A DNA stretch of 47,144 bases from Polyangiaceae bacterium. Lineage in GTDB: Bacteria; Myxococcota_A; Polyangia; Polyangiales; Polyangiaceae. The stretch's first letter is position 1. Each line of letters begins with the position of its first letter. The DNA lies in contig CANMZR010000002.1 in the NCBI GenBank assembly GCA_947502375.1, positions 1 to 47,144 on the forward strand, written 5' to 3'. The translations under genes and the position numbers were made by a program. Below are positions 6,122-11,540 of this stretch, piece by piece. Under the pieces are notes generated by a model. The model was not told where the DNA came from. It saw nothing but the letters and a program-made list of their open reading frames with translations, and ran no database searches.

Positions 6122-6760
6122 CTAGAAACCAAGGTTGTCCGGCGGCTTCGTGGTTGCGCGAGACGGCTTAGGGGCACTCTCCTTCGAGGGAGACGGCACG
6201 GGTCCCAACGGCCTCGACGATACCGCTGCCGGTGGGGCGAACACCGGCGGCAGCACCGGCGGCGCCACGATCGGCTCCTTGCGATCTGTCAACTCTGGCT
6301 GAACGACTGGAGCCTGCACCTCAGCCGAAACCGCGGGCTGCGGCGTAACGGGTACACCCTGCGGCTGAGTCCACCACCAGGTGCCCGCGGGACGGGGTGG
6401 CACGCGGCTCGGAGCCACATACCAAGCCGGCGCGTTCAACACCCAGGTGCAGTGCCAACCGTCCGGCCGACTGTCGCACACTTCAACGTAGGTGAGCTGC
6501 TTGCCACAGCCTCGAACGCCTTTCGTCCGCTCGTCGATGTCAACGAGCTCGGTAGCCGAAACCGGACATTGCAAGTCGAAGGTCGCCCGAACCCGCAGTT
6601 GCTGGACACTCGCTCCGGATGCGACGACGCAGCCCGTAAGAGCCAGCATCAGGAGGGCCACGACACCGAGGGCTTTGGAGCGGAACTCACCCCGAACCCG
6701 ACCCATCGCCAACTCGTCAAACCAAGGTAAGCCGAACCGGCGACAGGGGGCCGGCATCAA
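6122..6760 (-). CDS. Proline-rich putative lipoprotein of unknown function
   Basis: Lipobox-like LMLALTGC after MGRVRGEFRSK (alternative start about 6706); Pro-rich C-terminal half. Start uncertain. Confidence 0.65.
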   Translation of the reverse strand: MMPAPCRRFGLPWFDELAMGRVRGEFRSKALGVVALLMLALTGCVVASGASVQQLRVRATFDLQCPVSATELVDIDERTKGVRGCGKQLTYVEVCDSRPDGWHCTWVLNAPAWYVAPSRVPPRPAGTWWWTQPQGVPVTPQPAVSAEVQAPVVQPELTDRKEPIVAPPVLPPVFAPPAAVSSRPLGPVPSPSKESAPKPSRATTKPPDNLGF

Positions 6761-8478
6761 AACCGGTAGGTCGCGGTGAGACTCAACTCTTGGTTCTTGA
6801 AGCCATCGGCCGCGAAACGCCCGTTCTTCACGTCATCGTATTTGTAACGCAGCGCGATGAGTCCAGTCTGCTCGTAGACGAACCAGTGCAGAGCCGCGCG
6901 GAACTGACGCTCGTCGCGCTCTTTCTTCAACGCCGCACCGACGTCGGTGTTGATGTCGCTCGGCAAGCGGTCGAGATTGCCCGCGATGTACTCCCCGAAA
7001 TCCGCGGCGAAGAAGAGATGACGCGGCCACAGGAGTGCGCCGACGGTTGCGAGATAGCTGTACTGCCACGAGCCGAACTCGAGCTCGCGCTTCCAGTACG
7101 TCTCGGCCTGCGCGTAGAAATGCCACCACTTCACGACCGCCATGCCATTCCAAGCCGGGTAGCGTTCTTGGGCGCGCTGATCGTATTTGACGCCCACGAG
7201 CGCGGCCGCCATGAGCGGCACCGCGTTGTAGATGAACGGCGTATCGTAGCGGCTGTAATAGCCCGCCAGATTGAAGTGGAACTGCGTCCCGACGGACCAC
7301 GTGTAATTCGTGTTGTTGTCCGCGTAGAAACGGCCACCGACGTTGCCATTCGAGTTGCCGGAGCCACCTCCCGCGAACACGCGGAAGTTGATGCGTCCGC
7401 GTGCATCGATGGGCCCGCCGAACTCCGTCGCCGCGCCATTTCCCTGCTCAAACGCTGAGAATACGAAGTATGCAGGCTCGAGGAGCGGGTGCTTCGAGGC
7501 CGAAAGAATGGTCTGCGCCGTGAGACCTCCGCCACCCGAGTTGATGTTGAAGTAGTGCCCGTACTTGCCAACGGGCAACTGAAACATCGCAAAGGTCAGG
7601 CGTGGCGTTTTTTCGGCACGCAGATTCAAAAGGAAAAAAGAGTTCTCGATGTTGCCGATCGGTCCGAGAAACCTCATCTGCAGTGTCGAGAACGCGGTGT
7701 CCCACTTGTTCAGCGTCTGGTCACCGGGCTTCGTATCTTCGAGCCGGTACAGCTGTCGAACCTGCGCGACCACCGACAAGCGAAGGCCGGCCTGGGGGTT
7801 GCAAATCGTCACCTGAGGATCGAACCGGCAGCCGAAGTCGGCGCAGTCGGTCTTGCCGTCGCCATCGTTGTCGAAGCCGTCCGAGCACGTGTAATCGTTG
7901 CGCTCGCCGTCCACGTCGCCGAACTTGCCGATCAACTGATCGACGCTGACGCCCTCATCGAGCGGCGGGAGCGCGAAGCGGTTGCCCGCGGAGCCTTTGA
8001 CGCCCGGGACTTCACCTTTCCACTGGCCGCGGCAGACGGTGAGGCCGACACCCTGGCAATCCTTGTCGTCGCAATCGAGCGTTCCGTCCCCATCGTTGTC
8101 GATGAAGTCGCTGCATAGCGCATCGGTCTGTTCGTGGACTCCGGTCTTCTTGCAAGCGGGGGAATCAAGGCAGTCCGAGTCCGCGCAGTCCGTGACCGAA
8201 TCACCGTCTTCGTCGATGCGATCCGAGCAATTCGTCTCGTGTGCCGCAACCGGATTGTTCGCAAAGGTGGCCTCGGGTGCCGCCTTCACAACGCGTGGAT
8301 CGGCGGGCACGGCTTTGCCGGCGCCGGATATTTTCCCATGTTTGCCATCGCCGTCCGAATCGCCGGCGTCCTCGCGCGGTTGCTCAGTCTCGGCCTCCTG
8401 CGCGTACGCAGCATGACCTGCCGTAAGCGTCAGACCCAGCGTCCAAAGTGCCAACCAGGTTCGTCGTATCGCCGTCAC
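6757..8478 (-). CDS. Porin-like outer-membrane beta-barrel with three N-terminal Cys/Asp (DGxDNDxxGxxDC) repeats
   Basis: GTG start overlapping the upstream stop (GTGA at 8475-8478); signal-peptide-like N-terminus ending AYAQ; repeats CSDRIDEDGDSVTDCADSDC, CSDFIDNDGDGTLDCDDKDC, CSDGFDNDGDGKTDCADFGC; C-terminus with alternating strands ending ...LSLTATYRF. Confidence 0.75.
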   Translation of the reverse strand: MTAIRRTWLALWTLGLTLTAGHAAYAQEAETEQPREDAGDSDGDGKHGKISGAGKAVPADPRVVKAAPEATFANNPVAAHETNCSDRIDEDGDSVTDCADSDCLDSPACKKTGVHEQTDALCSDFIDNDGDGTLDCDDKDCQGVGLTVCRGQWKGEVPGVKGSAGNRFALPPLDEGVSVDQLIGKFGDVDGERNDYTCSDGFDNDGDGKTDCADFGCRFDPQVTICNPQAGLRLSVVAQVRQLYRLEDTKPGDQTLNKWDTAFSTLQMRFLGPIGNIENSFFLLNLRAEKTPRLTFAMFQLPVGKYGHYFNINSGGGGLTAQTILSASKHPLLEPAYFVFSAFEQGNGAATEFGGPIDARGRINFRVFAGGGSGNSNGNVGGRFYADNNTNYTWSVGTQFHFNLAGYYSRYDTPFIYNAVPLMAAALVGVKYDQRAQERYPAWNGMAVVKWWHFYAQAETYWKRELEFGSWQYSYLATVGALLWPRHLFFAADFGEYIAGNLDRLPSDINTDVGAALKKERDERQFRAALHWFVYEQTGLIALRYKYDDVKNGRFAADGFKNQELSLTATYRF

Positions 8479-9722
8479 TCGCACACCCGCTTTTCCTGTT
8501 TGCATACCGTCCCGAGGGGATTCCAGCTGCAGTCCCAATCTTTGCAGTCGATGAAGCCGTCGCCGTCGTTGTCTTTGCCGTCCGAGCAGTTCGCATCGAC
8601 TTCCGCCGCCGTCAGTCCAAGGCTCTCCTGACACACCGCTTGAACCGCTGGGTCCTTCGACTTCTTGCAGGAGTAATCGGCACAATCGACGAACCCGTTG
8701 CCGTCGTTGTCGATGCGGTCGGAGCACTTGTCCGGCGTCGCCTCGAGAATCAGATCGCAGTGGTTTTTTACGGCTGGGTCGTCGGATTGCGAGCAGCTGT
8801 AGTCGCCGCAGTCTGCGTACCCGTTCTGGTCGTTGTCGATGCCGTCCGAGCAACGTTCGAGCGACAACTCGAGGATCGAGTTGCAGTACGCGAGCACCGC
8901 GGCATCCTTCGACTGCGCGCAGCTGAAGTCAGCGCAGTCGGCGTAACCATTCTTGTCGTTGTCGACACCGTCCGAGCAGCGCGCAAGCGTCAGTTCGAGG
9001 ATGGAGTTGCAGTAGGCAAGGACGGCAGGCTCACTTGAATTCTTGCAGTTGTTATCGTTGCAATCGACGTAGCCGTTGCCGTCGTTGTCTTTGCCGTCTT
9101 GGCAGAACGCGAGAGAGGACTCGACACCGGCGCACGCATCGCCCTGCGAACACGACGCCGCATCTTTGCACGTCGCCGTCTTGGCACAGCCGCTGTCGCT
9201 GCAGTCGATGAAACCATCCGAATCGTTGTCTTTTCCGTCCGAGCACGTCGCGTCGAGGTTCTCGCTGCAGACGGTGACGAACATCCCGTTTCGACAGCCG
9301 TTGTCCTGGCAATCGACGAAGTTGTTCCCGTCGTTGTCTACCCCGTCCGAACAGAGCTCGTCAGAGAACTCACGGGTGCAACAGACCTCCGCAATGCTCT
9401 GGCACTTCGGGTCACCGCAATCGAACTTGCCGTTCTGATCGTTGTCGATCTGGTCGATGCAGAGCCGGAATTCGTTCTCGATCTCGTCAACGGGATAACG
9501 CGGGACGATCTCGCCGCACACGCCCGACTTGAACAGGCAATCCGGGTCTTCGCAGTCGATCAGATTATCGAGATCATCATCGAGGCCGTTCGAGCACTTG
9601 TCATCCTCGACCTCGTAGCCGAGCCTGGTCCCAGCCGGCGTCACGAACTCGCACGCACCGAGCAGCGCCAGCCCGCCGAGCGCTGCGAGCGCACGAAAGC
9701 GCCACGCGCTCACTTGAGGCAC
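8475..9722 (-). CDS. Secreted/lipoprotein with nine DGxDNDxxGxxDCxDxxC repeats
   Basis: Lipobox-like LALLGAC; repeats such as CSDGKDNDSDGFIDCSDSGC, CQDGKDNDGNGYVDCNDNNC, CSDGVDNDKNGYADCADFSC, CSDGIDNDQNGYADCGDYSC, CSDRIDNDGNGFVDCADYSC, CSDGKDNDGDGFIDCKDWDC. Confidence 0.8.
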   Translation of the reverse strand: MPQVSAWRFRALAALGGLALLGACEFVTPAGTRLGYEVEDDKCSNGLDDDLDNLIDCEDPDCLFKSGVCGEIVPRYPVDEIENEFRLCIDQIDNDQNGKFDCGDPKCQSIAEVCCTREFSDELCSDGVDNDGNNFVDCQDNGCRNGMFVTVCSENLDATCSDGKDNDSDGFIDCSDSGCAKTATCKDAASCSQGDACAGVESSLAFCQDGKDNDGNGYVDCNDNNCKNSSEPAVLAYCNSILELTLARCSDGVDNDKNGYADCADFSCAQSKDAAVLAYCNSILELSLERCSDGIDNDQNGYADCGDYSCSQSDDPAVKNHCDLILEATPDKCSDRIDNDGNGFVDCADYSCKKSKDPAVQAVCQESLGLTAAEVDANCSDGKDNDGDGFIDCKDWDCSWNPLGTVCKQEKRVCE

Positions 9723-10762
9723 CGCGGCTTAGGAGCAATGCGATAGCGACGGTCAAAGCCGACGTAGATCATGCAGGACACATCGGCCTCCTTCAGCGCT
9801 CCAAAAGCGCCAGCCTTGAGAAGCTCATCGAGCTTCGTTTTAACCGGCACGTCGCCCTTGTCGATAAACATGTGCGGCACGCGCTCCGTCGCGACGTATT
9901 CGGCGAGCATCGGGAGCAAGTAAGGATCTTCAAACCCCTTGATAATGCCCTTCGTGCGCTCGTCAGCCCGCAACGCGTCAATGACGGCGATCAAGTTCGC
10001 GCGCTCGGCGCTCTTGGCCTTCCAGCAAACGTTCTCGCATTCGTCGTAGTTGTTCTGATGCTTCCACTTGAGCGAGGAACCATCGAGCGACGAGACGAGG
10101 CGGTTGTAATTGTCCTTCGTGTCGAAGCGCTCATTCGCGGCGTGCGTGCTCGTCACGATCATCGCCGGCACGCCCTTCGCCCAGATCCCGCGACCGTGGA
10201 TGATGGCGTCACGTTGCGCGTCCATCAGGCGCTTCGGCGCGTCTCCCTCCACGCTGAGAACGTGCGCAAAACCGTTCTTTATCTGATCGTATTGGAGGTC
10301 AGGGCAAATGGCGAGGAAGCGCCCGTAGCCATCCTTGTCCTTCGGATCGAGCGAGCAATTCCAGAAACCGCGGCGCGCGTTCAAGGTGGCCTGCTTGGCC
10401 AGCGAGTACATTTCCCGCGCAGTCCAGCCGCCCCACTGGTGAGCGGAGCCGTACGACTCGAGCGTGTTGTACCCGGCCAGGCGAGCGGCGCGGTTCCGGA
10501 AGGGTCCGGCTAGCGCCCGAAAGGTATCGCCATCGTTGAAGTACACGGGCGTTGCGACCCCGTTTATCTTGACCGTCCCGGTCTGCGCCGTGGCACGTTC
10601 TGACGCTACGGCGACCGCGAGACCGACGAGACCGGCGAGCAGGGCTCGTGCGCCCAGGGCTCGTGCACCGAGTCCATCGAAGCGACGGGTATTCCCAGGC
10701 CCACTATTTTTTGGCGAGGGCTTCGAAATACCCTCGCGTTCGGCTGATATTGACTCGGTCAC
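9710..10762 (-). CDS. Secreted staphylococcal-nuclease-like (SNase) domain protein
   Basis: NDGDTFRA...AARLAGYNTLESYG...DKDGYGRFLAI matches the SNase pattern DGDT...RLxxxDTxE...GRxLA; signal-like segment ALLAGLVGLAVAVASERATAQ. Overlaps next gene by 13 nt. Confidence 0.75.
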   Translation of the reverse strand: MTESISAEREGISKPSPKNSGPGNTRRFDGLGARALGARALLAGLVGLAVAVASERATAQTGTVKINGVATPVYFNDGDTFRALAGPFRNRAARLAGYNTLESYGSAHQWGGWTAREMYSLAKQATLNARRGFWNCSLDPKDKDGYGRFLAICPDLQYDQIKNGFAHVLSVEGDAPKRLMDAQRDAIIHGRGIWAKGVPAMIVTSTHAANERFDTKDNYNRLVSSLDGSSLKWKHQNNYDECENVCWKAKSAERANLIAVIDALRADERTKGIIKGFEDPYLLPMLAEYVATERVPHMFIDKGDVPVKTKLDELLKAGAFGALKEADVSCMIYVGFDRRYRIAPKPRCLK

Positions 10763-10895
10763 CGGCTGTTACTCACCCCTCGATTCGAACGAATCAAGGC
10801 ACTAGGCTTCGCTTCACGACACGCCGGTACCTACAGGCGGCTGCGATGAACGTCAACGAGCATGACCCACCTTTCGTCGATTCGCGATTCGTTCT

Positions 10896-11420
10896 ATGAA
10901 GGACCCCATGAGAACTTCGGTGCTTTGTTTTTTGGCCACCGTTTCCTTTGCCTGCGCCGAGGACAGGTTTCCCGGAGCGGGCTCCGGCACTGGCGGCGGG
11001 ACGCCGACGACCAGCGTGGTGACGACCGGGTCCGTGACCAGCGGGGGCGGCGAGCTCGAAGATGACAACGCCCTCTGCGCCGACGGCAAGGACAACGACG
11101 GCAACGGTCTGAGCGATTGCTGCGACCCGAGCTGCCAGCCGAAAAACGCACCGAGTATCACGGTCTGTGTGGGCGATGGCTCCCCCGAGCTCGGCGATAA
11201 AGCTTGCAGCGACTGCATCGACAACGACAAGAACGGCTATGTGGATTGCAAGGATTTCGGTTGCTCAAAGGACGCGACGGTCACCATCTGCGGCCACGAA
11301 GACACCGACGAACTCTGTTCCGACGGCAAAGACAACGACGGCAACAAGTTCGTCGACTGCCAGGACTTCAACTGCTGCAAAAACTCCAAGGTCACGGTAT
11401 GCAACGGGACGTGCATGTGA
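10896..11420 (+). CDS. Small lipoprotein with DGKDNDGNG-type Cys/Asp repeats
   Basis: N-terminal VSFAC lipobox-like; repeats CADGKDNDGNGLSDCCDPSC, CSDCIDNDKNGYVDCKDFGC, CSDGKDNDGNKFVDCQDFNC. Confidence 0.75.
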   Translation: MKDPMRTSVLCFLATVSFACAEDRFPGAGSGTGGGTPTTSVVTTGSVTSGGGELEDDNALCADGKDNDGNGLSDCCDPSCQPKNAPSITVCVGDGSPELGDKACSDCIDNDKNGYVDCKDFGCSKDATVTICGHEDTDELCSDGKDNDGNKFVDCQDFNCCKNSKVTVCNGTCM

Positions 11421-11450
11421 CTCCGTTGCGTGAACTTTTCCGCCCGATCC

Positions 11451-11540
11451 ATGCTGGCTGAGAGATTAATGCTGGCTGAGAGATCAATGCTGGCTGAGAG
11501 ATCAATGCTGGCTGAGAGATCAATGCTGGCTGAGAGATCA
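11451..11540. repeat. Five tandem 18-bp units ATGCTGGCTGAGAGATCA
   Basis: Direct read: unit 1 ends TTA, units 2-5 are identical (ATCA end), followed by a partial ATGC; ends 9 bp before the tRNA. Confidence 0.97.

What the first reader, a model, noticed from the sequence alone, without database searches (positions are those of the whole stretch)
6122..10762. Operon joining an SNase-like nuclease, a 9x DGxDND-repeat protein, a repeat-bearing porin and a lipoprotein
Four minus-strand genes with overlapping junctions (13 nt, 4 nt, and up to 4 nt). The SNase homologue keeps equivalents of Arg35, Thr41, Glu43 and Arg87 of staphylococcal nuclease but has Asn where Asp40 (a Ca ligand) is expected. 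SNase is Ca-dependent and the repeats look like acidic, Cys-clamped metal-binding loops. Hypothesis: a cell-surface system that degrades extracellular DNA and passes products or phosphate through the porin. I know of no described system with this composition.
Basis: partly seen in the sequence, partly recalled or inferred. Interest (0 to 1): 0.65.

Follow-up and report, generated by a model that had tools for sequence, protein, structure and literature searches.

The report
Conserved nuclease–calcium-repeat–porin cassette in myxobacteria
In many predatory soil and sea bacteria (Myxococcota) three genes always travel together – a secreted DNA/RNA-cutting enzyme, a lipoprotein made of calcium-binding repeats and an outer-membrane pore carrying the same repeats – and their recurring neighbours (other nucleases and the DNA-import channel ComEC) suggest an undescribed machine for breaking down and taking up nucleic acids.

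Summary
SNase-like enzyme, nine-repeat lipoprotein and three-repeat porin form a strictly ordered cassette in 75 of 87 Myxococcota SNase loci with enough downstream sequence; 11 of the 12 exceptions are one separate clade of stand-alone SNases. The fourth gene is a local passenger: of the loci examined only the sister genome has it. The SNase fold is confirmed (AF2 pLDDT 93; Foldseek probability 1.00). Asp19/21, Arg35, Glu43 and Arg87 equivalents are invariant in 124 aligned rows; Asp40 is always Asn. The repeat is NF033662 and matches the teneurin-4 C-rich domain, crystallised with three Ca2+ (PMC9058538). The barrel looks like a 16-stranded porin, so its repeats are probably periplasmic, not surface-exposed. 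Guilt by association points to nucleic acids: a second, canonical SNase abuts the cassette or its divergent unit (about 14 loci), ExeM/NucH-like nucleases do so in 4, and in one family the genome's only ComEC lies just downstream in 19 of 21 genomes, with ExbB-ExbD-ExbD just upstream. Best explanation: a Ca2+-dependent envelope module for nucleic-acid digestion and uptake. No description was found. Function, substrate and location are inferred, not shown.

The parts
9710..10762 (-). SNase-like secreted nuclease (core gene 1); mature part from about 10576
   Evidence: AF2 pLDDT 93; Foldseek to SNase incl. 1snc, prob 1.00; D15, D17, R32, N37, E40, R86 of A1 numbering invariant; Sec-type signal without lipobox, by eye
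8475..9722 (-). Lipoprotein with nine acidic double-disulfide repeats (core gene 2); probable start GTG 9713
   Evidence: NF033662 x9, E 2.5e-77; lipobox LLGAC; ligand table
6757..8478 (-). Porin: signal peptide, linker, two repeats, linker, third repeat, then barrel of about 16 strands ending in Phe (core gene 3)
   Evidence: NF033662 x3; AF2 16 strands, pLDDT 72; Foldseek VhChiP 7e-11, OprP 1.9e-10, PorB
6122..6757 (-). Small Pro-rich lipoprotein; local passenger, not core
   Evidence: homologue found only in G160 among the loci examined; lipobox LTGC
10896..11420 (+). Divergent lipoprotein with three of the same repeats
   Evidence: NF033662 x3, E 2e-21; divergent repeat ORF also in about ten related loci
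10665..10805 (.). Dispersed repeat element overlapping the 5' end of the SNase ORF
   Evidence: matches at seven other places in this genome, about 79-83% identity

Best explanation
The three genes encode one envelope module that digests nucleic acids and helps bring in the products. The SNase-like enzyme is exported and cleaves DNA and/or RNA. The lipoprotein is a string of mostly 8-11 small Ca2+-binding, disulfide-clamped domains held at a membrane. The porin is a 16-stranded outer-membrane channel whose three copies of the same domain sit at its periplasmic mouth. Ca2+-loaded repeats on lipoprotein and porin rigidify or join the two and hold the nuclease at the pore, where it acts on incoming (oligo)nucleotides or DNA; in one lineage fragments are passed to ComEC, with an ExbB/ExbD motor in the same gene array. 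SHOWN by computation: gene order, invariant catalytic set, folds, match of the repeats to a Ca-binding domain, recurrent nuclease/ComEC neighbours. INFERRED: catalysis, substrate, Ca-dependence, complex formation, periplasmic placement, transport.
For: Order SNase > repeat lipoprotein > 3-repeat porin in 75 of 87 loci with enough room; in 184 order genomes SNase and porin co-occur in 37, with one singleton each, both at contig ends. D19/D21/R35/E43/R87 equivalents invariant in 124 aligned rows. SNase fold. Teneurin-4 C-rich match E 7.5e-6; its Ca-ligand positions D840/D843/D845/D851/D854 are kept in nearly all repeats (PMC9058538). Porin fold. Nucleic-acid neighbours: canonical SNases over the Pfam cut-off beside the cassette, EEP nucleases with weak ExeM/NucH similarity in four loci, ComEC 4-99 nt downstream of the porin in six loci and 0.4-1.0 kb in two, next to the cassette in 19 of 21 genomes of one family. 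ComA (ComEC) and ExbB are reported competence genes of P. stutzeri (cited in PMC5734746; PMC7660920 Table 1). The window's genome has ComEC, a ComEA-like HHH protein and DprA.
Against: Asp40, a Ca ligand of SNase, is Asn in every row, so activity may be altered. ComEC/ExbBD linkage is confined to one family and is absent in the window's genome; ComEC is near-universal (168/179 genomes), so its presence alone says nothing. A 16-strand pore is too narrow for duplex DNA. Barrel charge is near neutral. The porin model is only moderate (pLDDT 72) and no complex was modelled. No expression or biochemical data.
Confidence: 0.55

Rival explanations
1. Natural-transformation accessory: the nuclease processes incoming DNA in the periplasm (e.g. 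degrades one strand) for ComEC, powered by ExbB/ExbD; nutrition is secondary.
For: ExbB-ExbD-ExbD-SNase-repeat-porin-ComEC arrays; the genome's only ComEC sits there in 19/21 genomes of one family; ExbB and ComA are reported competence genes of P. stutzeri (PMC5734746, PMC7660920).
Against: Linkage in one family only; a porin and extra extracellular-type nucleases are not parts of known competence machines; ComEC proteins can carry their own nuclease domain (PMC8579336).
Confidence: 0.17
2. Mainly structural: a Ca2+-dependent outer-membrane scaffold or adhesion complex, the SNase-fold protein being a binding subunit.
For: Large number of Ca-domain repeats; the teneurin C-rich domain stabilises a cell-adhesion receptor with Ca2+ (PMC9058538); Asp40 is Asn; ExbB/D motors serve other envelope machines too.
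Against: Catalytic Arg35/Glu43/Arg87 equivalents and the Asp19/Asp21 pair are invariant across the phylum; extra nucleases recur next door.
Confidence: 0.13
3. Barrier or weapon: an envelope nuclease that destroys incoming phage or foreign DNA, or prey DNA during predation.
For: Exported nuclease; many Myxococcota are predators (own knowledge).
Against: No PADLOC match; no immunity or defence genes among recurrent neighbours; a conserved porin is hard to explain.
Confidence: 0.07
4. A porin for some other small substrate, with an SNase-like phosphodiesterase acting on a non-nucleic-acid or cyclic-nucleotide substrate.
For: Top porin matches include a chitoporin; SNase chemistry is phosphodiester hydrolysis.
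Against: Recurrent canonical nucleases and ComEC nearby.
Confidence: 0.08

Closest known systems
Staphylococcal nuclease family (PF00565; thermonuclease, SND1)
   Same: Fold, Asp19/Asp21, Arg35, Glu43, Arg87 equivalents
   Different: Asp40 is Asn throughout; extra C-terminal domain of about 145 residues without a structural match; six Cys invariant in the 37-row set; sub-threshold to Pfam
NF033662 acidic double-disulfide repeat; teneurin C-rich Ca-binding domain (PDB 7plp)
   Same: Acidic ligand ladder and disulfide pattern; in teneurin-4 three Ca2+ are bound (PMC9058538)
   Different: Tandem arrays of mostly 8-11, on a lipoprotein and on a porin; the third Ca site is complete only in some repeats
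16-stranded porins (VhChiP chitoporin, OprP, PorB)
   Same: Predicted barrel with 16 strands
   Different: Below 15% sequence identity to the top matches, no specific Pfam porin family; N-terminal Ca-domain array
ComEC/ComA with ExbB, competence genes of Pseudomonas stutzeri
   Same: ComEC and ExbB/ExbD genes in one locus in one Myxococcota family (PMC7660920)
   Different: In Pseudomonas without nuclease, repeat lipoprotein or porin between them (own knowledge)
Extracellular-DNA utilisation nucleases (ExeM/NucH)
   Same: EEP-family nucleases with similarity to these sit beside the cassette in four loci
   Different: Those matches are far below the ExeM/NucH cut-off; I know of no dedicated porin or Ca-repeat lipoprotein in known systems

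Membership tests
Staphylococcal nuclease (SNase) family | OB-fold nuclease domain | tested here: met
   AF2 pLDDT 93; Foldseek prob 1.00 to SNase, TM-score 0.57-0.66 normalised to target
Staphylococcal nuclease (SNase) family | Catalytic Arg35, Glu43, Arg87 | tested here: met
   invariant in 37+75+12 aligned rows
Staphylococcal nuclease (SNase) family | Ca ligands Asp21 and Asp40 | tested here: not met
   Asp21 invariant, but Asp40 is Asn in all 124 rows; one search pattern required Asn, the 37-row A1 set and L199-L218 were found without it
Staphylococcal nuclease (SNase) family | Score above Pfam gathering cut-off | tested here: not met
   17.6-18.4 bits against 21 for the window protein; neighbouring second SNases do pass
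Acidic double-disulfide repeat (NF033662) | Curated score cut-off | tested here: met
   254, 91 and 75 bits against 41
Teneurin C-rich-type Ca-binding domain | Ca-ligand residues | tested here: met
   D840, D843, N844, D845, D851, D854 positions kept in nearly all repeats; D847 often Asn, D856 and E835 variable
Teneurin C-rich-type Ca-binding domain | Measured Ca2+ binding | not testable with these tools
   needs ITC or crystallography
16-stranded outer-membrane porins | 16 beta strands, C-terminal Phe | tested here: met
   16 strands in the DSSP listing of a moderate model; ends in YRF
16-stranded outer-membrane porins | Sequence match to a porin family | tested here: not met
   no specific Pfam porin family; only weak OMP_b-brl hits in 4 of 35 members
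Natural-competence machinery | Linkage to ComEC | tested here: inconclusive
   19/21 genomes of one family, none of the others tested, ComEC elsewhere in the window's genome
Natural-competence machinery | Needed for DNA uptake | not testable with these tools
   needs deletion and transformation assay
Known anti-phage defence systems | PADLOC match | tested here: not met
   none at E<=0.01

The most novel reading that the evidence does not exclude
A previously undescribed type of envelope machine, widespread in Myxococcota: a porin and a lipoprotein bearing arrays of teneurin-type Ca2+ domains hold a dedicated nuclease at the pore, coupling nucleic-acid digestion to import; in one lineage it forms a seven-gene route from the outer membrane to the cytoplasm (ExbB-ExbD-ExbD-SNase-repeat-porin-ComEC).
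Probability: 0.35. Interest if true: 0.85.

Novelty: new variant of a known kind. Interest (0 to 1): 0.68.

Why it matters
It would give the Myxococcota, a phylum of predators and scavengers, a dedicated conserved route for using DNA or RNA, and would show a substrate-type porin paired with its own nuclease. It also gives a job to the abundant but uncharacterised NF033662 repeats, ties them to the Ca-binding domain of animal teneurins, and offers a concrete seven-gene array in which the role of ExbB/ExbD next to ComEC can be tested.

Tried and rejected
Four-gene operon: rejected; of the loci examined only G160 has the fourth gene. Surface-exposed repeats on the porin: unlikely, because an even-stranded barrel ending in Phe puts both termini in the periplasm (inference). 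Anion/phosphate-selective pore by charge count: inconclusive, 35 basic against 30 acidic residues in the window's barrel, though several Arg are invariant. Defence system: no PADLOC match. Porin annotation by sequence: no specific Pfam family and only the Ca repeat matched in PDB. Presence of ComEC as evidence: rejected, near-universal; only adjacency counts. ComEC linkage as several independent events: the SNase tree needs at least three label changes, but the genomes whose family is known all fall in one family, so I count one lineage. Literature searches found no description of the cassette. A first neighbour clustering missed the second SNases because of crude gene calling; stop-to-stop ORF searches found them.

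Full report
What is there. The window is contig C2 of a 4.63-Mb, 512-contig genome of the Polyangiaceae (nearest relative G160, 86% identical SNase, recorded as Polyangiaceae bacterium RH-23may17-336). The four minus-strand ORFs are real. Read from the sequence, repeat lipoprotein and porin are joined to their upstream genes by GTGA 4-nt overlaps (a 13-nt overlap is the alternative for the first), and the fourth gene overlaps by 1 or 4 nt. The annotated SNase start lies inside a dispersed ~140-bp element with matches at seven other places in the genome, so the true start is uncertain.

The cassette. Searching 184 genomes of the order, the SNase-like protein occurs in 38 and the porin (strong matches) in 38; 37 are shared and the two singletons, G100 and G018, lie at contig ends. 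In 100 loci from two searches, 87 SNase genes had enough downstream sequence and 75 were followed by a repeat ORF and then the barrel on the same strand. The lipoprotein mostly has 8-11 repeats, the porin 3 in 68 of 75. Eleven of the twelve exceptions form a separate, well supported clade of stand-alone SNases; the twelfth is L183. Each of 42 SNase-positive genomes from other families of the phylum has the porin. The fourth gene was found elsewhere only in G160. A divergent repeat lipoprotein like 10896-11420 is seen in about ten related loci.

The parts. SNase: alignment A1 of 37 sequences has Asp19, Asp21, Arg35, Glu43 and Arg87 equivalents invariant and Asn in place of Asp40; the same holds in 87 more rows (some of these are the same genes reached by another search). 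One peptide pattern used by the scan contained that Asn, so only A1 and L199-L218 are free of that bias; an ordinary SNase beside a Sandaracinaceae cassette has Asp there. AF2 gives pLDDT 93 and Foldseek matches staphylococcal nuclease (1snc and others, probability 1.00) over the N-terminal half; the C-terminal half has no match. Repeats: NF033662. The porin profile matches the teneurin-4 C-rich domain 7plp at E 7.5e-6, a domain with a 1.5 A structure holding three Ca2+ (PMC9058538). Its ligand positions D840, D843, N844, D845, D851 and D854 are kept in nearly all repeats here, D847 is often Asn, E835 and D856 vary. Porin: AF2 predicts 16 strands (pLDDT 72) and Foldseek ranks VhChiP, OprP and PorB among the first. 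By the topology of such barrels both termini face the periplasm, which places the N-terminal repeats there; this is inference.

The functional clue. Recurrent neighbours concern nucleic acids. (a) A second, canonical SNase, mostly a lipoprotein and mostly with Asp at position 40: directly downstream of the porin in nine Sandaracinaceae-group genomes, behind the divergent repeat lipoprotein in three others, and divergent in two more (all ten tested were over the Pfam cut-off). (b) EEP-family nucleases with weak similarity to ExeM/NucH in four loci. (c) In one family, ExbB, ExbD and ExbD lie upstream and ComEC (E about 1e-40; over the TIGR00361 cut-off in the one tested) downstream: all eight ComEC-linked loci examined carry the full seven-gene array on one strand, and the only ComEC of the genome is next to the porin in 19 of 21 genomes of that family, in none of the others tested. 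ComEC is nearly universal in the order, so only the linkage is informative. ComA (ComEC) and ExbB are reported competence genes in P. stutzeri (cited in PMC5734746; PMC7660920 Table 1). The window's genome has ComEC, a ComEA-like protein and DprA elsewhere, and no other SNase over the cut-off.

Interpretation. The most economical reading is an envelope module for digesting and importing nucleic acids, with Ca2+ holding repeat domains, porin and probably nuclease together. Nutrient scavenging and DNA uptake for transformation cannot be separated with these data. Catalysis, substrate, Ca-dependence, complex formation and location are untested. I found no description of the cassette, but the library holds open-access papers only.

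Verdict. Observation confirmed; interpretation partly supported; the general job (use or uptake of extracellular nucleic acid) is known, the architecture is not, hence 'new variant of a known kind'.

Noticed in passing
window 10665-10805; L002-L008: Dispersed ~140-bp element with a CCCTCGATTCGTTCGAATCGAGGG palindrome, matches at seven other places in the genome; it supplies the annotated 5' end of the SNase ORF.
   Followed up: partly
window 11450-11500: Short tandem repeat 'atgctggctgagagatca' downstream of the divergent lipoprotein.
   Followed up: no
L065:10715-11392, L069:10149-10799, L081:4419-5087 and others: Second, canonical SNase beside the cassette in Sandaracinaceae and some Polyangiaceae-like genomes.
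   Followed up: yes
L122:2410-3882, L123:5890-7023, L134:1-1029, L171:3771-4970: EEP-family nucleases with weak ExeM/NucH similarity in the divergent neighbourhood.
   Followed up: partly
L204-L218: Separate clade of stand-alone SNase-like proteins, also with Asn at position 40, without repeats or porin nearby.
   Followed up: partly
L238:10269-10799, L240:10510-11073: In cassette-free Polyangiaceae, ComEC is followed by what looks like a hypoxanthine phosphoribosyltransferase gene (purine salvage), judged by eye.
   Followed up: no
L158:5240-7729, L173, L178, L186, L188: FG-GAP-repeat lipoproteins upstream of the cassette in one Sandaracinus-like group.
   Followed up: no
L198 (CAMDBH010000001.1): Record titled Klebsiella pneumoniae carries a myxobacterial cassette; very likely a mislabelled MAG.
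   Followed up: no
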